A DNA stretch of 64,000 nt from Piper betle (Eukaryota > Streptophyta > Magnoliopsida > Piperales > Piperaceae), in contig JAURVB010006451.1 in assembly GCA_033002965.1 (NCBI GenBank), positions 1-64,000 of the forward strand, written 5' to 3'. The notes under the pieces were generated by a model. That model worked only from the letters and a program-made list of their open reading frames with translations, ran no database searches and was not told the DNA's origin. Made by a program: the position numbers and the translations under genes. Below, piece after piece: positions 1-47,548 of this stretch. How positions within the stretch are numbered: the stretch's first letter is position 1; each line of letters begins with the position of its first letter.

Positions 1-42
1 GGTTTCGAATATAAAACCCTAACTCGAATCGTGGGTTTTACA
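1..42 (-). repeat. Edge of a long LTR (same family as the solo LTR at 43671-46579)
   Basis: Read on the minus strand, this begins TGTAAAACCCACGATTCGAG and continues TTAGGGTTTTATATTCG. The solo LTR at 43671 begins TGTAAAACTCGCGACTCAAG and continues TCAGGGTTTTATAATCG. The match over about 36 bases, including the TG terminus, identifies an LTR start that runs off the left end of the window. It sits directly against the truncated family B repeat, so it probably inserted into it. Only 42 bp are visible, so the rest of the element cannot be judged. Confidence 0.6.
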
Positions 43-440
43 GGTAGGACCGGCCGGGGGAGGGGGGCATAGGGACGGGGTGGGGTGGGTGGATTGGGCG
101 TCGACAGGGGTGAAGCAGGGGCGACGCATCGGAGAGAAAGAATCGGGGAAAGAAATAGTCGGTGGCATATTCGTAATTAAAAGATGACTCAATTGAGTTA
201 AAAATAATAATTAATTCTAAATAATTTAAATATATATATAAAAAAATACCATAAAATATAATGCACACCATAACATCAAAATGACATATTTTATAATTAA
301 TAACCCACTCATTTTAACCGATTCAAGTGAATTAATTCTTATCCGATTTTTAATGAATCGGTCTAATTCAATAACTCCCCTCTAATCCAATTCAACATCA
401 GATTCCAATTTTTGCAATTGCAAACACAACACAAGAAGAA
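43..440 (-). repeat. Family B repeat, truncated copy
   Basis: Closely similar to the right half of the repeat at 36178-36947, including the tract from about 120 to 400 (AGAAATAGTCGGTGGCAT, TCGTAATTAAAAG, ATCAAAATGACAT, TTAATAACCCACT). On the minus strand it starts near 440 with TTGCAAAAATTGGAATC, matching the terminus of the other copy, and runs through an AT-rich module into a GC-rich tract. It stops at about position 43, where an LTR begins. It is probably non-coding and non-autonomous. Confidence 0.65.
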
Positions 441-35271: not shown

Positions 35272-36116
35272 CATGGCTGCATGAATCGGAATCGGTTTTC
35301 CAGGGAGTCGGAATCGGAATCGAAATCGGTCTGAATCGGCCAGGAATCGGTTCAGTTGAATCGGTCCAAATTAGTTTAATCGGTCATATATAATAATTTG
35401 ACAATTCATAATATAAATATATTAAGATTAGGTATTGATGTTATTTTGATATTATTCTGTGTATTATAGTTTATGATATTTTTAAATATTTTTTAAGATT
35501 TTTTTAAAATTATTTAGAATTAATTATTATTTTTAACTCGAGTTAGACTCGAGTCAACTTTTAATTACGAGAATGCCACCCTCCGCTCTTTACCCCCGCC
35601 GCCGCCGGCGGCCCGGTCGACGGCGAGTCTCGCGGCGGCGATGTCGGAGGATGTCGGCAGCCCGGTCGGACGAACAGTCGGCGGCCCGGAGTCGGCGGCG
35701 ATTCGTGCGTCACAGCCCGATTCGGTCCGGCCACACGTCGGCGGCGACGTTGCGAGGTCGGCGGCGAGGTCGGCAGCCCGGTCGGCGGCGAGCCCGGAGT
35801 CGGGGACGCACGGCGGAGGGCGGAAACGGGGCGGCAGCGGGCGGACGAGCGACGGCGGTGTGGGGGGAGCGGGTTTGATTTTAGGTTTTTAAAATCCAAA
35901 TTACCATTTTACCCATGCTTAAATAATTTAATAAAAATCATACCTAGGGTATTTTAGTAATTTCCTAAAAAACCGATTCCGATTTAAATCGGCCGATTTC
36001 GATTCCGAGTTAAATCGGTCGGAATCGGCCGAACTCGGGCGATTCGGTGACCGATTCGGGGCCGACCGATTCGGCCCCGAAATCGGATCGGCGCGATGCC
36101 GATTCGTGCATCAGAG
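35272..36116 (+). mobile_element. Family A element, hAT-like non-autonomous transposon, copy 1
   Basis: An 845-bp element flanked by the 8-bp direct repeat CAGCATAC (35264-35271 and 36117-36124). Its ends are CATGGCTGCATGAATCGG and, read inward from the other side, CTCTGATGCACGAATCGG, an imperfect terminal inverted repeat. Inside lie GAATCGG-rich subterminal repeats, an AT-rich module (about 35420-35580) and a GC-rich tract (35580-35870). No transposase is encoded. An 8-bp target duplication is the hAT hallmark, but the class assignment is inference. A second copy in inverted orientation lies at 38071-38914. Confidence 0.85.
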
Positions 36117-36177
36117 CAGCATACATATTGCTTATGCATGGATAATTCTCACTTTGTCATTGGTCTAAAATACCATG

Positions 36178-36947
36178 CTTGCAAAAATGAGTGGAATCAG
36201 ACGATTTAAATTGGATAGGAAGCAATCCGCACAAAAAAAGGGGTAAATTGGTATTCGTAAAAATCGGTTCATGAATTGGCCGATTCATGCCGATTCTGGA
36301 ATTGGCCAATTCTGGATGGCGACGGGCAACCGTGGGGGGGGGTGGGCAACGGCGGCGAGGGATAGGGTGGGGGGAAGACGGGGCGACGACTAGGTGCATG
36401 GAGAACAGGAGGGGCCGGCAGGGAAGGGGGTGGCGGGGGCAGGGCGAATTGGGCGTGGCCGGTGGCATGGGGGGGACAGATTAGGCTAAGAATTGCGGCG
36501 AGGTGTGCGGGGGACGGGTAGGTAAGTGGATGGCAGGGCAGGTTGGGGCGGGGTGCGCAGGGGGTGGGTGGGGCCGGTGGGGGAGGTGGGGTGGGGGCGG
36601 CGACGGTGATCAGCGGAGGTAAAGGAGGGGCGGCACGTCGGGAAGAGAGAATCGGGGGAAAGAAATAGTAGGTGACATTCTCGTAATTAAAAGTTGACTC
36701 GACTCCGACTTTTGTTAAAAATAATAACTAACTCCAAATAATTCAAAAAGAATCCAAAAAATATAGAAAAATATCATAAAATATAATACATATCTTAATA
36801 TCAAAATGACATGTTCTATAATTAATAACCCACTGATTTTGATCAATTCAAGTGAACTGATTATTATCCAATTTTTGATAAATCAGTCTAATTCAATAAC
36901 TCCCTTCTAATCCGATTCAACGACTGAATCTAATTTTTACAACTATA
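36178..36947 (-). mobile_element. Family B element, full copy
   Basis: About 770 bp bounded by the 12-bp direct repeat TAAAATACCATG (36166-36177 and 36948-36959), so the target duplication is within those 12 bp. Termini are short inverted repeats (TTGCAAAAATGAG against TTGTAAAAATTAG). Its layout (subterminal CCGATTC motifs, AT-rich module at 36671-36840, GC-rich tract at 36300-36640) parallels family A, and the right half matches the truncated copy at 43-440. No protein is encoded. The element class is uncertain. Confidence 0.7.
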
Positions 36948-37269
36948 TAAAATACCATGGAGTAGCGAAAGTACTTGAACTTACAAGGGCGGCAAAACCA
37001 GAAGTCACAATCTTTAAGGAAGACTCATAAAAACAGGCTTCAATACGTACATGAGCAGCTTGGATGAGCTGTACCCAAGCATATTTAACAGTGAAGGTTG
37101 TCAATTTTAACTTGTTAATCCGCTTGAACTTGCTCTTAAATTCTGTCGTGGACCAAAACGTTGGAGTGGGAACAGTTTTGGCTCCCATGTGTGTTGATCT
37201 TTGCCACACTTTTATTGTGGGTCTTTCAGCATACAACTTGACCTTTCCATGAAAATGAACTAGCAACAT
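36943..37269 (-). CDS. Unrecognised open reading frame of 108 codons
   Basis: Starts at an ATG (37267-37269) and reads MLLVHFHGKVKLYAERPTIK and onward, with no domain I recognise. Its 3' end runs into the direct repeat of the family B element. The base composition is less AT-rich than the surroundings, which is the only hint that it might be coding or derived from a gene. It could be an old gene fragment or chance. Confidence 0.2.
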   Translation of the reverse strand: MLLVHFHGKVKLYAERPTIKVWQRSTHMGAKTVPTPTFWSTTEFKSKFKRINKLKLTTFTVKYAWVQLIQAAHVRIEACFYESSLKIVTSGFAALVSSSTFATPWYFI

Positions 37270-38062
37270 TATTGGGGCCTTTTTTTTAAAAAAACATCAT
37301 TACTAATTTAATATTAGATAAATTTTAATTTTATATATAAATTTTCATTAAATAATGAAATAAAGTATAATAATTTAATATCTTTGATGTAAAATTTGAT
37401 TGAGTTTAAAGATGGATCATCATTGAATAGAATATCATTTCACTATTTAATGACACCTAAATTTCTCTCGTGCCAACATATATTAGTTAACTAATAAATT
37501 ATGCTCAATTTGAAGTAAACATTTCTAATGCCTCTAGCTAATTACATAAAAAATTTCCTTAAAAAATTTCTCGTATCAATTTTACTTCCTTATATTAGCA
37601 AAGTTGCATTAACCTGATGAGATGATAATCAAGAAATAACTTTTATAATGTTCCGTAAATAAAAAATTGTCAATTGACTCTTACTAATAAAAAGGGAATT
37701 TAATACTGACATATGATTAAAAATAAGAGTTGTAATCAATCAAAATTTAATAAAAAATAAAAAAATAAAAATTTTATTTATAATCATTATCTTCTCATTA
37801 AATGAGAATTTATATTTGAAGTCAATAGAAGCCTATATATAAAATATTATGTTATTATAATTTATCTCATCATTTAATGAAAATTTACCTATAAAATTTA
37901 AATTTATTGGCAGTGTACGTCACACGTAGTATGACATCTTACCTATTTTAATATAAAAATACATAAATTATCTTTTGAAATAAATTGGCCCTAAGATAAT
38001 TCTATACACACACACACATATATATATATATATAGCTATTGTAACTAATATGCTATTTGGTG
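36960..38062. other. AT-rich spacer between elements
   Basis: Very AT-rich sequence with a CA/TA microsatellite at about 38008-38034. Apart from the weak frame at 36943-37269 nothing is supported. Confidence 0.4.
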
Positions 38063-38070
38063 GGTTAAGC

Positions 38071-38914
38071 CTCTGATGCACGAATCGGCCGCCGATTTAA
38101 ATCGGATCGGCGTCGCGCCGATCCGATTTCCAAGTCGGCCCCGAATCGGTCCACGAATCGGCCGTTTTCGGCCGATTCCGACCGATTTAACTCGGAATCG
38201 GAATCGGCCGATTTAAATCGGAATCAGTTTTTTAAGGAAATTACTAAAATACCCTAGGTATGATTTTTATTAAATTATTTAAGCATGGGTAAAATGGTAA
38301 TTTGGATTTTAAAACCTACCCCTCTCCCCTGCTTCCGCTGTCGCGTTCGCTCCGCCGCCCTCCGCCGCGCTTCCACCGTCCGACCTCAGCTCCGTCCGAC
38401 CACGCCACCGCCGCCCGATTCCGACCTCAGCTCCGCCCTCCGCCGCACTTCCGCCGTCCGACGCTGCGCCCGATTCCGAACTCGGCTTCCGCCGTCCAAC
38501 ACTTCCGCTGTGCTTCCACCGTGATTCCGCCTCGATTCCGCCGTTCGACCCTCCGCCCGACCTTCCGACCACGCCACCGCCGCCCGATTCCGAGGGTGGC
38601 ATTCTCGTAATTAAAAGTTGACTCGAGTCTAACTCGAGTCAAAAATAATAATTAATTCTAAATAATTTTAAAAAATCTTAAAAAATATTTAAAAATATTA
38701 TAAACTATAATACACAGAATAATATCAAAATAATATCAATACCTAATTTTAATATATTTATATTATGAACTGTCAAATTATTATATATGATCGATTAAAC
38801 TAATTTGGACCGATTCAACTGAACCGATTCCTGGCCGATTTAGACCGATTCCGATTCCGACTCCGACTCCTTGAAAAACCGATTCCGATTCCGATTCCGA
38901 TTCATGCAACCATG
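38071..38914 (-). mobile_element. Family A element, hAT-like non-autonomous transposon, copy 2 (inverted)
   Basis: An 844-bp element flanked by the 8-bp direct repeat GGTTAAGC (38063-38070 and 38915-38922). The ends CTCTGATGCACGAATCGG and, read inward, CATGGTTGCATGAATCGG match copy 1. The internal AT-rich module, GC-rich tract and CCGATTC-rich ends are all shared with copy 1 in opposite orientation. The different 8-bp duplication shows it is an independent insertion. Confidence 0.87.
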
Positions 38915-38990
38915 GGTTAAGCCACGGAGTGGAGTCTAACGTAGACGTAGAGTTATTTATATTATTTTTTTATTATAATAAATATTATTG

Positions 38991-39245
38991 CCAAAATTTT
39001 GATTTCGTCATTAATTACTAATTTTCATGAAATGATTGATGATAGTATCGTGTGTCTATTGGGTCAAGGAGGAGAGGGAAGCTCTAGAAAAAAAGAGAGA
39101 GAAGTGACTTGGAAACCAAAATTTTGATTGCGTCATTAATTACTAATTTTCATGAAATGATTGATGATAGTATCGTGTGTCTGTTAGGTCAAGGAGGAGA
39201 GGGAAGCTCGAGAAAAAAGAGAGAGAGAGAAGTGACTTGGAAACC
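38991..39245. repeat. Tandem duplication, two units of about 125-130 bp
   Basis: Unit 1 (38991-39115) and unit 2 (39116-39245) both begin CCAAAATTTTGATT and contain AATGATTGATGATAGTATCG then GAGAGAGAAGTGACTTGGAA. They differ by a few substitutions and the length of a GA run, so the duplication is recent. Confidence 0.92.
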
Positions 39246-39455
39246 GATAACATTTAATGATAAATAGTGGCTACATATATATCCTTAGTTTGATTGCAAT
39301 ATCAGCGGACGCCAAAACATGATACACGTTGAGGTCTTGAACTATTACCAAAATATAATGGAGACACTGATGGCTAGAGGCCTCACTAAATAGACCGATG
39401 CCAGCCAAAGAAGGCTATTTGCACGCATGATTTATTGGGTTTATTTTATATTGAT

Positions 39456-39860
39456 CGTTAAAGGTATTAGTGACTTGTCCATCGGTTAATTAAAAAGACT
39501 ATTCTTTAAATTAACTTTTAAATCAAGAGAGACCTTTGACTTGTATTGCAAATCTTTTTGAAGGTCTTTAAGGCTTAAAGTGATATCAAAGTCAGGATAT
39601 GAGTTTTACTTACGCCGATTCACCGATTGTAGAAGTTTCCTTCATAGAAGGGCTTAATAGTGGTCGGATTTTACCTATTATTTATGCAAATTGTAGAAGT
39701 TTCTTTTATAAAAGGGCCCAACACTGGTCGGGTTTTGCCTATTAATTACGCCGATAGTAAAAGTTTCCTTTATGGAAAGGTCCAATAATAGTATTATAAT
39801 TCATGCCGATTATAAAAGTTTTATTTATGGAAGGGTAAAATAATAGTATCAGAGCTTGAT
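39456..39860 (+). repeat. Degenerate LTR remnant with primer-site-like sequence
   Basis: The stretch contains about four diverged repeats of roughly 60 bp (variants of GTAGAAGTTTCCTT...TATGGAAGGG...AATAGT). It ends in AATAGTATCAGAGCTTGATT, of which AGTATCAGAGC at 39845-39855 resembles the tRNA-iMet primer site found in the gypsy element here. This suggests the 3' edge of an old LTR followed by its primer site. The 5' boundary is a guess. Confidence 0.4.
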
Positions 39861-42044
39861 TGAGAGCCTAAAGAGCCCCAAGGTGATTAACTTACCAAAA
39901 TATGTATGGTTTTATTGTGCATTAGTACGAAGATTGGAAGTGGACCAAGTTTATTCTCAATCTCGCTTAATTAGTCTAATATGGATGCATTCCTTCTTTT
40001 TTTCCTTATACTATAATATATATAATATTTTAATATTTAGCTTATAAAAAAGCCATAAAAAATATCCATTGTTTGTCAAAGATTCCATTGTTTGTCAAAT
40101 CGAGCCGTCAAACTTCGCATGAAAATCATGTTTCTAAATTTCACATCACGAGTCAAATCATTATTAAGAAAATTTTTTATTATAAACCCCTCTACATTGT
40201 AAGAAACTAAAATTAACTCATTATCTTCAACGAGCAAAGGAGTAAAAGCTTATTATAAATGAGCCTCCGTAGGCTAGAGAATTGTTTTATCGAATCCGTT
40301 GTAACACTTGACTAATAAGTATAAATTACTTAAATTAGTAGTTAAAAAACTTATTATAATAATTAAGTTAATTTATTTTCATTTATATAATTTACACTAA
40401 AAAGGCAAGTGCTACAGCATAGATGAAATAACTTCTTACAACTCTTTCACATCTCTTTATCCTCTCTTGTGTAAAATCAAAGAGAATATTTTTTTATAAA
40501 CCCCTTATAAATAAGCAGCATCGTTTGAAAACACAAAATTTAAACTTGACTCGACATGTTATAGATGTGGAATTCATTTAGAATCAATTCCGAACAAACT
40601 TGGAGTCATTTATATCAAATTTATAATTATAAGAATACAAAATTATATAAAAATAATATATATTTTGACATTCATAAGAATTTGACTCGTAAGTTAAGGA
40701 ATCTAGTCGACTTAGAAGAATTTTTGGAGTTAAAAAAAGGTTTTCAAGCTTAACGGGTACCTTTGAACCATCTTATAATAATAATAATAGGTGGTCATCT
40801 TATACTTATACACCAGAGAGGAGAGGATACGGGGAGGCGAGAGAGTTTGAGAGAAATTATCGCCCTCGTTCGAGGGCGCTCGCGGGGAATTTTTAATATC
40901 AAATGGAAGCTGCAATGTTGAAACGGCCAAGACAACGTCCAACTTGAATCAGGCCAAAACGTTTCTCCGAGCAGGCAGCAAGCATTAACACCTCGGCCCC
41001 CGGTCATGAACCATTAATGGAAGTGATGTAAAATATTTTGATGACGAAAATGGTCGACGGCGGTCAAACGCCGATCGGAAACTTCCACGCCGGCCGTGCA
41101 TGCACGTCCCCATCACGTGATTCGCGTGCTACTTTAATTTCCTGTGCCTTTTTTTTCTTTGTGGTTCTTACAAATTATTTGTCTCGGTGTCTTTTAGTAC
41201 ACGAGTGCTTCACTTAAAATTTGGGCTAGATGTATTAAAATCCGGTAATATTAAGGTAAGCAACATTTTATGAGCGAAGGGTACTTCTAATTTGAAGCCT
41301 TTTGGTGTTAAACGATGGGTCGATATGTATGGGAAATAGAGATATATAAATAAGAGATTGGCAGGTTTTTATCTTTTTTAATATATTAATGTAACATATT
41401 TTTAGAGTTTTCAAAAATATACTAATTTAAGAGTATTTTCAAACTTTTTTTAATCACAGCTACTTTGATAATTAAAATAAAAGGGTTAAAAATATCAAGT
41501 TGATTTGAAAATTTATTAGCATCTTAATTATTTATTTTTATATTTAACTATGTGGATTTTAAATAGTAGCTCCCGCTAAATTAGTTCAAATCAAAATTGT
41601 AGCTCATATATATAAATTTATATAAAGTGTAGCTCATGTATATGATGCTTATTTAACTCTGATAAATGTGTGGTTCAAAATAAATAAAGTTTTTTTATCT
41701 TATAACATATACACCAGCTTCCAAGAGTAAACAATTTTAAAGAGCGTACAAAGGATTTGGCCCAGCCTGGCTCAATATTAATTGATTCATTCAAGCACAG
41801 GCTAGCTCTGAGCACTTAGTATGTTTTCGGTCAATTATTAATATTTGGATAAAAAAGTATTTCGAAAAATATAACTTGAAATAATTTATTCAAAAATAGC
41901 GTTTACATGGTTCAAGTCGGAAATGCGAGAATGTTTAATTAATTACCAACAAAAATGGTAAATCAACAAGAATAAAATTCACAACAATAACACACACAAT
42001 CCAACCCTACCGCCAACCCTAGTGCTTTAGGAGAAACCTATGTA
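39861..42044. other. AT-rich intergenic region
   Basis: No coding region or complete element can be supported. The segment just downstream of 39860 may be internal sequence of a decayed LTR element. Confidence 0.4.
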
Positions 42045-42049
42045 TATAC

Positions 42050-42246
42050 TGATAAGTTGTAAATATATTATATAGATTTTCCTCCTAACTAATTTTTGTA
42101 GACCTCGTCCTCATCTTTATCCTAATAGATTGTAACTACATTATACAGATTTTCCTCCTATAATTTTTGTAACTAATTTCCTGTTATATACTCTATTTAT
42201 ATGTGAATAGAAAAATCTCTCGTTAAGGAGAATTTATTTATTTTTA
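42050..42246 (+). repeat. 5' LTR of the copia element
   Basis: Begins TGATAAGTTGTAAATATATT and matches the 3' LTR along its length, with a few substitutions. The copy ends around the TTTTTA before TTGTATTAGAGC. Confidence 0.9.
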
Positions 42247-42274
42247 TTGTATTAGAGCTTTCATCTCTCAATCC

Positions 42275-42451
42275 AATGGCCTCTCCTACAGACTCCACTT
42301 CCACTGACTCTGTCTTAATTTCCTCTGTCCCTATCAACTTTCCTGTGGTAAAATATATTTCCCAGGACATCTTTCTTAAACTTACCAGAGAGAATTTTAT
42401 TCTTTGGAAAGCCCAAGTCCTTGTCCTACCCACTCATCGTAGGATTGCTTG
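42275..42451 (+). pseudogene. Truncated copia gag N-terminus
   Basis: Reads MASPTDSTSTD, then NFPVVKYISQDIFLKLTREN and FILWKAQVLVL, the conserved start of copia gag (the LxxxNFxxWKxQ pattern). It stops at a TGA at 42449-42451. The sequence that follows belongs to the linker before RT, so the deletion junction lies close by. Confidence 0.75.
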
Positions 42452-43670
42452 ATGGTACCTTCCCGAAGCCCACACATCCTGTTTATCAAACGGCCCTTCG
42501 CACACGACCCTCATCTCCACCTATGTTTATCAAACAGCCCTTCCCACAGCTGTCGGATATGTCCTCCCCCTCCTCTATCTCTCCCTCTGCTCTACCCAAT
42601 ACCTCAATACCTTTCCCTCCATCGCTATCCATTGTCTCCTCCCAATTAGATGTTTCGGCCCCTCACTCTTCTCCCTCCCCATCCATCATTTCCTCACACC
42701 CTGTTGCTTCTTCACTATTACAGGATGCTCCCTACCCTTGTCTTTATATGTCCAGTACTGCATCTTCCAATGTTAAGATCCACCCTATGATAACCCGTAG
42801 CCAAGATGAGACTCGCAAGCCCAAAATACTTTTCTCTACCCGCTACCCTATTCCTTCTTGTCTTCTAACAACCTCTTCCTCTCTTCCCCTTGAACCTACA
42901 TGTTTCACCCAAGCTTGCAAGGACCCAAATTGGCGTCAAGTAATGAATGACAAATTCAACTCTCTACTAAAAAATCGTACACAGTCCTCAGTTCCTTGCC
43001 TTTCATCGATGAATGTAGTTGGTTCAAAATGGGTTTTCAAAGTAAAACAAAGATCTGATGGCTCTCTTGAACAGTACAAAGCCAAACTAGTTGCGAAAGG
43101 GTTCCATCAACAACTAGGTCGCGACTACAATGACACCTTCAGTTCAGTAGTTCGCATTGGCACCATTCATCTTGTTATTTCTATTGACATTTCAAAGGGT
43201 TGGGTTCTTAGGCAACTTGATGTTAAGAATGCTTTTATTTCATGGTGATCTTAAAGAGACAGTATTTATGGAGCAACCTCAGGGGTTTATTGATTCTAAG
43301 TCTCCTGATTATGTTTGTCACTTACACAAGTCTATCTATGGATTGAAGCAAGCATCCCGGGCTTGGTATCACAAGTTTAGTACATTTTTTCTCAACTCTG
43401 GGTTTCAAAATTCACCTCATGATGCCTCCATGTTTGTTCTCGCCACGGATACCTACATGGTAATTCTCCTCATTTATGTGGATGACATTATCTTGATCGG
43501 CTCCTCTTCTGTGATGATGTCAAAATTTATTGGGATTCTCTCTTCACACTTTGATATGAAGGACTTAGGTCAGTTAAATTTCTTTCTTGAAATGGAAGTC
43601 ACTTATCGGAAATATGAAATTCTTCTTTCTCAAACCAAGTATGCCCTTTAGTTGCTTCAACAATTGGTAT
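42452..43670 (+). pseudogene. Copia linker and reverse transcriptase, broken frame
   Basis: A serine/proline-rich linker (from 42460) leads into RT: WRQVMNDKFNSLLKN, GSKWVFKVKQRSDGSLEQYK then AKLVAKGFHQQLGRDYNDTF, and QLDVKNAFI. A frameshift near 43235 moves the frame to HGDLKETVFMEQPQGF, IYGLKQASRAWYHKF and the catalytic YVDDIIL. A TAG at 43649-43651 (KYAL-stop) ends it just before the solo LTR insertion. Confidence 0.9.
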
Positions 43671-46579
43671 TGTAAAACTCGCGACTCAAGTCAGGGTTTT
43701 ATAATCGTTAGCTGGTCGGTTCGACCGTGGTCCGAGTTGGTTCAGCTTTCAGAACACGTGTGCGGGGCCGAGGCCGACCGTGTGCACGTGCTATGAGGGT
43801 TCTTGTATACCCAAGTATTGATGATAGCGTCAGATATGCATCAGCAGACTGAGTTATCAGTAGATATGAGAGTATACAGTTGATGATTTTATTTTTTTTA
43901 TGTTGTGACCGTAGAATTAGTTTAGGCTGAATAACGCATTAGGACGCGTTAGATGGTATTCGGGTGGGTTATTAGTTATATAGCATGTCATTTGGATGTT
44001 GTTGTGTTTGTTTTATTTTATGAGATTTTTCCATATTTTTCTAGATTTTTTTAGAATTTATTACGAACTAGTTATTATTTTGACTCGAGTAGGAATCGAG
44101 TCAATACTTATTTACGAGTTTGCCACTAGGGGTGTTTTTCTCCCTCCCGACACTTCCTCACCCAAACCCTACCACCGCCGCCCACTGTGGTCGCCGCCGC
44201 CACCGCTGCCAATGCCGCACAGCCGCCGATCAACGCCGCCCCACCCCGCCGTGCAGTCGCCGTGCCGCCACGACCCACCCCGGCCACCGTCTCGCCGCCA
44301 CGACGCCGGAATCGCCCCACAAGCCGCGACTCCCCCCCTTGTCGATTCGCCGCCGTCCGGGCAGTGCCGTCACCGCCGTGACCCCGACGACCACCACCTT
44401 GACCTCGCCGACATTTCCCCCATCATCCCGACCGCCGTCGAGGCCGGCCGTAGCCCCGATCGGAGCACGCCGTCGCCGCCGCCGACAGCCATCGCCGCCC
44501 CGGCTACCCTGTTTGACACCACCATCGGACCAAGCTCGTCGAGCTGGTGCCGATAGACCCCCTGATTGCCCCGTCCAGAATCATCGCCGGAAAACCGCCG
44601 GAATGCCGCCGACACTCGCCGGAAAATCGTCGAAACCGCCAGAAAATTGGATTCGTGGGAAATTCGCCGGATCATCCGCCGAACGCACCCGGTCGAATCC
44701 GATCGGACTTCGGACGCCGCTAGGTGCCGAATTCGAGTTTCGAGCCACAAAACGGAAACCCTAGCCGTCGCCGATTTTCGACGACGCGAGGTATAAATTA
44801 CTCCGACGTAAATTCTTAAGTTTTGTAATTATTAGGGAAGCATGCTAGACTAGATAATTAGATGAATTTTTGTGTTTTTGACGTGTCTGTATGTTTGTGT
44901 GTAATTTAATAAAAATTATGAAATTGGTTGATTGATGAGTGTTAAAATGGAAAAGTAAGGAATTAATTAGGTGAACTAATTAATTACCCTGATTTCATGA
45001 GACGTAGATTGAAAACTCACTAGGATTGACTTAGGATGAATGTGTGATGATTGATGCGTGATTGCGTTGATTGTGTGTGCATGCTATAGGATGTGTGATT
45101 CATCATGCGGGCGTTAGCTTTTAGCTTGATTGTGTAGGTACGGTGTAGGAGCTCGCCGCCTAGGCGCGTGGACCCGTTTGGAGCTTCTACCAGGTCCGTT
45201 TAGGACTCGTTCTCTGTTTTTACGCTACTCTATTGTGTATTTGATTTATCATGTGCAAGACGAGTTAAGTGGCGTTTTATCGGATCCCACTTAACTCGGG
45301 CCATTTAGCCAACAATTTTCTGGATTAATAACCCTCGAGGATGAGATCCCTCGAGCTTGTTTTCGAAAATAAGATCCACCTCAAGTTGCCTTCGGGCCTA
45401 TTATAATAAATCCCGACCCAGCCCTATAAATAATTTTATCAAGTTTTCAGTGAGACAAGAGGAGATGAATCGACTTGCACGTACCATGAGCGGATGCCGT
45501 GACAGTCAAAGCGGGCTCTGGATTAGTGCCAGCGGACTGTTCCATTCCCGAGGGATCCTGACAACTCCGCGTTTGAGTTCCTCACACCCGGAGGACGTGG
45601 AGGTTTACGGGTACTGTTTAGTACAGCGCATGTCCGGACTTGTGGTTCAAAGGGTACTAAAGGCGACTGTCTGAGAGTACTCGGCCTACGTGCTCAAGGC
45701 CAGGAGAGATATGGAGGTTCGGAGAGGGCTTAGGATAAAAGTTTTACGTGAAGTACTGAAAAAGAAGTGTCGTGAGCGGCACAGTACCAGATAGATCGGG
45801 ATGCTGTTGAGTCAGCTGCTCGACGGCTCCTCTGTAGTTGCCCTTATGAGAGTTCTTGAGGAAGATATATATGATGGTTTGCTTTCCATGAGAGTTTGCT
45901 CTCATGTTCCAGTTTGATATTAGTTATTTCCGGACCAGTGACACCCGTTGCTGACGTTTTTCTATATATATGTAGGTGAGAAATGCGAGGGATGAAAGCT
46001 GTCGGGACTGCGGAGGAGCAGCACGGAACCGCGCACACATGTACCTACCACGTGTAATGTATAATGATGGTGTGTTAATGCTGTGTGAATGATAATTAGG
46101 ATGTTTTTGTCTTGATGAATTGCTTATTATGAAACGAACGGATAATTGTGAATGAGTAGGAAGCCTTGGAGTTCAGACTCGGCTCAGATGAAAACAAATG
46201 AGATAATGATGAATGCTACGGTAGATTGTCATGTTTTATCGTATTTTGATAAAATATTTATATACCCTTGTTGTGGACAGGTTGGCCCCTATTGCACTTT
46301 TAGGGGAGATTCTGTCCGTTTTTCCGTAAAAATTAATGAATTTTTAATTAAAATTTCTTGCTGTTGCATGGTTTTGTTTTGCTTGCACATCATAGCATGC
46401 ATGTAGGACTACGTTAGAACCCACGCATCCCATCCATGCATTTCATGTTTGCATCTCCATCTTGAGACACCGAGGGCAGATCCGGGTCGGCTTAACCGAA
46501 CCCAGTAGATTAGCGAACGGTTCGGTCGCCGATGACATTTCCGGGTCGGTTCACGGGTGAGCCGAAATGGGGTGTTACA
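43671..46579 (+). mobile_element. Solo LTR, 2.9 kb, nested in the copia element
   Basis: Begins TGTAAAACTCGCG and ends GGGGTGTTACA, the TG...CA ends with TGTAA/TTACA inverted repeats expected of an LTR. The flanks GGTAT (43666-43670) and AGTAT (46580-46584) form a 5-bp target duplication with one mismatch, and the copia sequence resumes exactly after it. No primer site or pol domains are inside, so this is one LTR left by recombination between the two ends of a larger element. A GC-rich tract at 44160-44780 gives long open frames of low complexity that are unlikely to be genes. The same LTR start appears at 1-42 (minus). Confidence 0.85.
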
Positions 46580-47314
46580 AGTATGGATGCTGTAAAACCA
46601 ATTTCGACTCCTACTTCCGGTGATCGCCTTTCCATGAATGATGGTGACATCCTGTCTAATCCTACTGAGTATCGTCAGCTTGTTGGGAGCTTACAATATC
46701 TAACACTTACATGACTGGACTTTGCTTATGTTGTTAATGGTATTTGTCAATTTATGCAGACTCCCCACACATCTCATCTTTTTGCTGCTAAGCGCATCCT
46801 GCGGTATATTAAAGGCACTTTGGGTTTTGGCCTTCGCTTTACTCCCTGCAGTTCCTTCACATTAATTGGTTACACTGATGCTGATTGGGCAGGCTGTCCA
46901 GACACATGCTGCTCTACCTCTGGGTTTGCTATTTATCTTGGGCAAAATTTAATCTCCTAGATTTCTAAGAAACAATCAATAGTTTCTAAGTCTAGCTCAG
47001 AAGCTGAGTTTCGCTCCTTGGCTCTTCTTAGCTCAGAGGTGATGTGGCTACTACATTTACTCAAAGCCCTACAAATTCCATTGTATTCTCCATTGACCCT
47101 CTACTGTGACAATGTCAGCACCCTTAATTTGGCATCCAATCCAGTTCTACACAATAAAAGCAAGCACATTGAAATTAATATGCATTTTATTCGAGAGAAG
47201 GTAGCAGCTGGAATTGTTAGACTTCGACATATTCCCTCCACTGACCAAGTTGCCGATTTATTTACTAAGCCTCTCTACCGTCCTCATTTTAAATTGCTTC
47301 ACTCCAAGCTTTAA
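46580..47314 (+). pseudogene. Copia RNase H region, broken
   Basis: Continues the copia pol after the solo LTR: KPISTPTSGDRLSMNDGDIL, EYRQLVGSLQYLT (then a stop), AAKRILRYIKGTLGFGLRF, YTDADWAGCPDT, SKKQSIVSKSSSEAEFRSLA, LYCDNVSTLNLASNPVLHNK, and the terminal TKPLYRPHF. Two in-frame stops are visible (near 46713 and 46961). The catalytic D of DADW and the acidic residue of SSSEAEF remain. Confidence 0.88.
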
Positions 47315-47344
47315 GTTGGTTCCGCTCTTGAGCTTGTGGGGGGG

Positions 47345-47543
47345 TGATAAGTTGTAAATATATTATATAGATTTTCCTCCTAACTAATTTCTGTAGACCT
47401 CGTCCTCGTCTTTATCCTAATAGATTGTAACTACATTATATAGATTTTCCTCCTATAATTTTTGTAACTAATTTCTTGTTATGATACTCTATTTATACGT
47501 GAATAGAAAAATCTCTCGATAAAGATGAGTTTATTTATTTTCA
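47345..47543 (+). repeat. 3' LTR of the copia element
   Basis: Begins TGATAAGTTGTAAATATATT directly after a run of Gs and ends ATTTATTTTCA. It matches the 5' LTR with few differences, so the copia insertion is not very old. Confidence 0.9.
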
Positions 47544-47548
47544 TATGC

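What the first reader, a model, noticed from the sequence alone, without database searches (positions are those of the whole stretch)
35420..44130. A ~160-bp module with a conserved hairpin is shared by a long LTR and by short TIR-like elements
The segment at 43965-44130 inside the solo LTR matches the AT-rich module of family A (35420-35580, and 38590-38750 reversed) and family B (36671-36840 and 161-310, both reversed). Shared blocks include GGGTTATTA, ATGTCATTT, ATTATATTTTATGAT-like, TTATTATTTT and TTTACGAG.TTGCCAC-like. In its centre lies an inverted repeat: TGACTCGAG/CTCGAGTCA at 38619-38641 (one mismatch at 35534-35556) and TTGACTCGA/TCGAGTCAA at 44080-44104. In each case a GC-rich tract follows. 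LTR and TIR elements are not expected to share sequence, so either one captured it from the other, or families A and B are not TIR transposons, or the module has a selected role such as a promoter or silencing target.
Basis: partly seen in the sequence, partly recalled or inferred. Interest (0 to 1): 0.8.

Follow-up and report, generated by a model that had tools for sequence, protein, structure and literature searches.

The report
Retrotransposon promoter carried by hAT transposons
In this plant genome a stretch from the likely control region of a copy-and-paste element also sits inside many small, unrelated cut-and-paste elements, most likely because the latter picked it up as internal filler and spread it.

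Summary
A ~165-bp AT-rich block is homologous between a 2.9-kb solo LTR (43671-46579) and four short elements of families A and B: 70-78% identity to the LTR copy, 0 of 1000 dinucleotide shuffles as good in any of 4 comparisons. The hairpin is intact in the LTR and A2, has one mismatch in A1, and is broken in both B copies.

A and B are genuine TIR transposons: non-autonomous hAT elements with 8-bp target duplications. A related LTR belongs to a chromovirus (SH3_Tf2-1 + chromodomain).

At least four related hAT subfamilies (A, B, D, E) carry versions of the block; in B, D and E it follows the same hAT junction. D has ~40 bp more LTR-like sequence upstream plus LTR-like leader. On module trees the hAT versions fall among LTR lineages. 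Best reading: hAT elements captured a piece of chromovirus LTR, probably promoter plus start of leader, and amplified it. Donor direction is inferred; a single hAT clade is not statistically rejected.

The dyad is not significantly more conserved than its surroundings and its changes are rarely compensatory, so selection on a hairpin is unsupported. Precedent: filler DNA in maize Ds (PMC3260210).

The parts
43671..46579 (+). Solo LTR (2909 bp) of a chromovirus-type element, TGTAAAACTCG...GGGGTGTTACA, inserted in a copia-type element; flanks GGTAT / AGTAT (4 of 5 match)
   Evidence: the same left end in 7 of 8 copies fetched (the 8th, L007, lies at a contig end); copia type of the host from RVT_2 hits; chromovirus type inferred from L089, upstream of the related LTR L071
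43962..44126 (+). Module in the LTR, about 290 bp from the LTR's left end
44080..44104 (+). Dyad TTGACTCGA-N7-TCGAGTCAA in the LTR
35272..36116 (+). Family A copy 1 (845 bp), non-autonomous hAT: ends CATGGCTGCATGAATCGG / CTCTGATGCACGAATCGG, AATCGG-rich flanks, 8-bp target duplication CAGCATAC
35430..35580 (+). Module in A1, dyad with one mismatch around 35533-35557, followed by a GC-rich tract
38071..38914 (-). Family A copy 2 (844 bp), non-autonomous hAT, 8-bp target duplication GGTTAAGC
   Evidence: read, checked; homology to A1 80% over 841
38595..38738 (-). Module in A2 with perfect dyad around 38618-38642
36174..36947 (-). Family B copy 1 (774 bp), non-autonomous hAT, 8-bp target duplication TAAAATAC
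36671..36836 (-). Module in B1; dyad broken
42..422 (-). Partial family B copy 2; next to its filler the start of a related LTR (1-41, reverse, cut by the contig end)
   Evidence: both limits approximate
161..311 (-). Module in B2; dyad centre deleted

Best explanation
The module is a piece of the U3 region of a group of chromovirus (Ty3/Gypsy) LTR families, probably their promoter: an AT-rich stretch, then a dyad, then TTACGA-N3-TGCCAC, then a pyrimidine-rich leader. A hAT lineage acquired this piece as internal filler just inside its 5' subterminal region, by repair after excision or by an LTR insertion followed by deletion, and non-autonomous descendants spread it: family D keeps the longest piece, B lacks about 40 bp of it, A descends from within B, and E carries a more distant version. 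Shown: homology, hAT nature of A and B, the common hAT junction of B, D and E, longer LTR homology in D. Inferred: LTR as donor, mechanism of capture, promoter activity, number of captures (one to three).
For: A and B have hAT hallmarks. 12 of 12 fetched D elements (12 of 40 listed, found by similarity to L019, which has the extra stretch) and one of the two modules in L019 join the same hAT 5' end (...GGTCAAAATCGGT, with variants) to ~40 bp more LTR-like sequence (ATAACGCATTAGGACRCGTTATA..GCAGTTTGGG) than B has. D upstream 42 nt scores 34.5 against LTRs versus at most 19.2 in 100 block shuffles; D leader 27.7 versus at most 22.7. Of 20 fetched hAT 5' ends (20 of 40 listed) 11 carry B, 1 D, 2 F and 6 E filler (assigned by eye). 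Module trees: D clade 98/86 and B+A clade 99/95; LTR rows join each with modest support (86/79, 87/69; 83/86) and ten LTR rows lie outside a 96/91 branch; E joins a diverged LTR, L036, at 97/87, and LTRs are one side of a branch in 0% of 200 bootstrap trees. In nine of ten LTR stretches the LTR start is recognised, 379-413 bp before the dyad. Maize Ds elements carry filler that can include LTR retrotransposon pieces (PMC3260210, passages).
Against: A tree with the hAT modules as one clade is not rejected (p-AU 0.33, 0.41, 0.20), and with one exchange only the direction rests on the root, which is the midpoint and weak. E and L036 have long branches, so their pairing may be an artefact. The hAT layout (subterminal repeats, AT-rich block, GC-rich leader) resembles the 5' end of an autonomous hAT such as Ac (recalled), so the block could be native to hAT. 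No hAT relative lacking module-like filler was seen among the 20 ends fetched. B's leader only just exceeds shuffles (22.4 versus maximum 22.0). No expression data.
Confidence: 0.7

Rival explanations
1. Reverse direction: the block is the native promoter and leader of an ancient hAT transposase gene, and a chromovirus took it up as its U3 promoter.
For: Same junction after the hAT 5' subterminal region in families B, D, E and F; one hAT clade not rejected (p-AU 0.20-0.41).
Against: LTR modules lie on several sides of the hAT clades in the best trees. No autonomous partner was found, but only 781-901 bp next to 20 of 150 listed hATC hits were examined.
Confidence: 0.2
2. Selected regulatory module: the dyad is a binding site or hairpin kept by selection, which explains its presence in unrelated elements.
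For: 6348 exact dyads, 93% of those with spacer 0-20 having spacer 7; the core also in tandem arrays, family C; strong folding in LTR, A1, A2; in LTR and D modules the arms are somewhat better conserved than both flanks (0.885 versus 0.853 and 0.778; 0.889 versus 0.845 and 0.774).
Against: Pooled non-CpG arms versus other columns p = 0.16; in B the arms (0.865) are below both flanks (0.876, 0.925); 108 one-sided, 6 double non-pairing and 7 compensatory changes among 551 scored arm pairs; dyad lost in B1 and B2. Common descent explains the spacing.
Confidence: 0.08
3. Chance similarity of AT-rich sequence.
For: The block is AT-rich.
Against: 0 of 1000 shuffles in each of 4 comparisons.
Confidence: 0.01

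Closest known systems
Maize Ds elements with filler DNA (Ds2, Ds-l4; PMC3260210, passages seen)
   Same: Non-autonomous hAT elements, Ds-l4 about 1 kb, with short TIRs, subterminal hexamer repeats (AAACGG there, AATCGG here) and unrelated filler, which in maize can include LTR retrotransposon sequence
   Different: Here one specific LTR segment is shared by several subfamilies with high candidate counts, and it looks like a promoter; Ds ends were not compared with these
Chromovirus LTRs (Ty3/Gypsy; Tekay-like by recall)
   Same: A related LTR (L071) follows an SH3_Tf2-1 and chromodomain tail (L089); long LTR, TG...CA ends
   Different: The window copy is solo; copies spaced about 5 kb apart suggest a short element, not tested further

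Membership tests
hAT superfamily (family A) | 8-bp target duplication | tested here: met
   Exact in 18 of 22 copies with both ends found, of 30 fetched; one more with one mismatch, 3 not (L010, L012, L020)
hAT superfamily (family A) | Target consensus nTnnnnAn (recalled) | tested here: met
   T at position 2 in 13 of 18, A at position 7 in 14 of 18; overall T 0.29, A 0.28
hAT superfamily (family A) | Short terminal inverted repeats with subterminal repeats | tested here: met
   Imperfect ~18-bp TIR; 19 AATCGG/CCGATT in A1, 5 in B1
hAT superfamily (family B) | 8-bp target duplication | tested here: met
   Of 30 loci: exact in 7 (L039, L040, L042, L047, L054, L060, L062), one mismatch in 10 (one doubtful, L063; L043 and L044 share flanks), none found in 12, no right end in 1 (end shifts of up to 2 allowed, no chance control)
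hAT superfamily | Mobilised by a hAT transposase with matching ends | tested here: inconclusive
   Next to 20 of 150 listed hATC hits no matching end; AATCGG/CCGATT count 0 in 19 and 1 in one
Chromovirus (Ty3/Gypsy) | Chromodomain at the integrase C-terminus | tested here: met
   PF24626 E 1.7e-23 and PF00385 E 6.8e-6 (26.4 bits, cut-off 25.1) in L089, upstream of the related LTR L071; not tested for the window's own subfamily
LTR of a retrotransposon | TG...CA ends and 5-bp target duplication | tested here: inconclusive
   TG...CA present; duplication 4 of 5

The most novel reading that the evidence does not exclude
The cassette is a shared, mobile promoter: chromovirus LTRs, several hAT subfamilies and tandem-array repeats (family C) carry the same dyad core, are switched on by the same factor, and exchange it repeatedly, so that one regulator controls class I and class II elements together.
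Probability: 0.1. Interest if true: 0.75.

Novelty: new variant of a known kind. Interest (0 to 1): 0.42.

Why it matters
Filler capture by hAT elements is known, but here the filler looks like a control region of a retrotransposon, kept through several hAT subfamilies; the loose first look gives 4537 candidates for A and 5560 for B (not confirmed copies). If it is active, small DNA transposons would be spreading a retrotransposon promoter, and small RNAs against one class could also hit the other; both are testable. It also warns that repeat annotation by similarity alone may mix LTR and hAT families in this genome.

Tried and rejected
Hairpin under selection: not supported. A and B as non-TIR elements: rejected by target duplications. 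Search for an autonomous hAT partner: 150 hATC hits listed of 1242 candidates, 781-901 bp next to 20 of them examined, nothing. Direction from the tree: midpoint root only, one-clade test not rejected, so left as inference. Literature: in the listings of seven completed searches (titles and starts of abstracts seen, 15 of 462) I saw nothing on an LTR promoter carried by hAT elements; the hits I took for primer-like matches and did not open. Only PMC3260210 was opened, as passages. The species was not identified. The profile was built from 13 modules that include the five of the window, so their matches to it are no independent proof. Labels for the trees were partly set by hand after reading flanks. 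Dropped before the trees: sequences under 125 letters, identical sequences, all but 8 or 3 of the A rows; B was thinned to 16 rows; one of four E elements was left out (short match). In one search, 14 of 83 rows fetched through the exact dyad were dropped; some of the rest were found with queries that contain the module.

Full report
What was claimed. A block of about 160 bp with an inverted repeat is shared between a long LTR and short TIR-like elements. I checked the homology, the nature of each carrier, the wider genome and the likely history.

The homology is real. Self-BLAST of the window gives 70-84% identity between module copies, E 1e-15 to 1e-38. None of 1000 dinucleotide shuffles of each of four partners reached the real score against the LTR copy.

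What carries it. Family A: 22 of 30 fetched copies have both ends recognised, 18 of these with an exact 8-bp duplication biased to nTnnnnAn; ends are CATGGTTGCATGAATCGG and CTCTGATGCACGAATCGG, with AATCGG-rich regions inside them. Family B is a relative with more diverged copies (72-86% identity to B1 in the 39 other main hits), with ends CATAGTTGCAAAAATCGG and 8-bp duplications, exact in 7 of 30 and with one mismatch in 10. Both look like non-autonomous hAT elements; one search lists no ATG/GTG/TTG open frame of 150 aa or more inside A1, A2 or B1. The LTR runs from 43671 to 46579 and lies in a copia-type element (RVT_2); its left end is the same in 7 of 8 fetched copies. A related LTR (L071) follows a coding tail with SH3_Tf2-1 and chromodomain (L089), so the LTR group is of chromovirus type.

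How common it is. The exact dyad with a 7-base spacer occurs 6348 times, control 0; spacers of 0-20 add only 449. One search listed 50 sites. I fetched 20 stretches covering 27 of them, chosen mainly for spacers other than the two commonest. By reading: ten stretches are LTRs of several families (nine with the LTR start recognised, L072 by similarity); three are hAT of B type (L079, L082, L084); L075, L076, L086 and L087 are tandem arrays, about 75 bp per unit in L087 (the others were not measured), and L075 also holds an A element; L080 and L081 look array-like; L074 holds a truncated module in a context I did not resolve. The 23 listed sites not fetched have the spacer of the window LTR (14), of family A (8) or of L071 (1); that assignment is by spacer alone.

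History. An odd hAT copy (L019) led to family D. 12 of 12 fetched members (12 of 40 listed) and one of the two modules in L019 join the same hAT 5' end to about 40 bp more LTR-like sequence than B has, and most continue into an LTR-like leader. The second module in L019 and the F elements L135 and L142 (same flanks, so perhaps one event) keep about 10 bp. Of 20 fetched hAT 5' ends, 11 carry B, 1 D, 2 F and 6 E filler. E holds a distant version: E-values 2.6e-10 to 6.8e-7 in four examined, with high composition bias, but 0 of 500 dinucleotide shuffles of each of the four scored as well (best shuffle 5.7 bits against 18.9-30.7). Module trees put A inside B, D beside old LTRs, and E beside a diverged LTR, L036, whose LTR start is recognisable with a shift of one base. 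The simplest reading is that LTRs are the donors, once or up to three times, with later deletions on the LTR side of a fixed hAT junction. Against certainty: a single hAT clade is not rejected (p-AU 0.33, 0.41, 0.20), the root is a midpoint, long branches are in play, and the shared junction argues for one capture.

The hairpin. Of 83 modules, 69 were not fetched through the exact dyad; the 62 of LTR, D and B type enter the test. Non-CpG arm columns average 0.904 identity to consensus versus 0.863 elsewhere, p = 0.16. In LTR and D the arms are a little above both flanks, in B below both. Arm pairs: 430 unchanged, 108 one-sided, 7 compensatory, 6 double without pairing, 7 gapped. The best-conserved ten-column windows are AT-rich blocks just upstream of the dyad (TATTATTTTT) and further up (TATATTTTAT). 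Folding is strong in LTR and A2, weaker in A1, and no better than shuffles in B1 and B2. So neither an RNA hairpin nor special selection on the dyad is supported; the position in U3 before a pyrimidine-rich leader suggests a promoter, which is inference.

Known background. Maize Ds elements are hAT elements with subterminal hexamers and filler that can include LTR retrotransposon sequence (PMC3260210, passages seen). The present case is a variant of that, notable because one regulatory-looking LTR segment is shared by several hAT subfamilies.

Noticed in passing
L075, L076, L086, L087, and flank of L024: Family C: tandem arrays (about 75 bp per unit in L087) holding the dyad and ATTACGAAATT, with outward-facing GC-rich leaders at array ends (e.g. 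L087 1069-1766), like a two-way promoter with repeated sites; the carrier element is unknown.
   Followed up: partly
L019 2767-3809: A D element appears to carry the module at both ends in opposite orientation, like a foldback; the right end is cut by the fetched stretch.
   Followed up: partly
window 42048-47545: The solo LTR is nested in a copia-type element: RVT_2 pieces lie before it (42421-43651) and copia-like sequence seems to go on after 46580 (read by eye).
   Followed up: partly
window 43671-43700 and relatives: The left end of related LTRs also holds GACTCGAGTC (TGTAAAACCCGTGACTCGAGTCAG), the sequence that makes up the dyad arms.
   Followed up: no
window 1-41: A related LTR starts in reverse next to the filler of B2, which looks like a nested insertion of the kind that could lead to capture.
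   Followed up: no
G000 C8857, C828, C600; C1, C30: Copies of the window LTR's module or dyad lie about 5.0-5.1 kb apart in one orientation, suggesting a short element with about 2 kb between its LTRs; C6 (5.9 kb) and C10173 (3.4 kb) differ.
   Followed up: no
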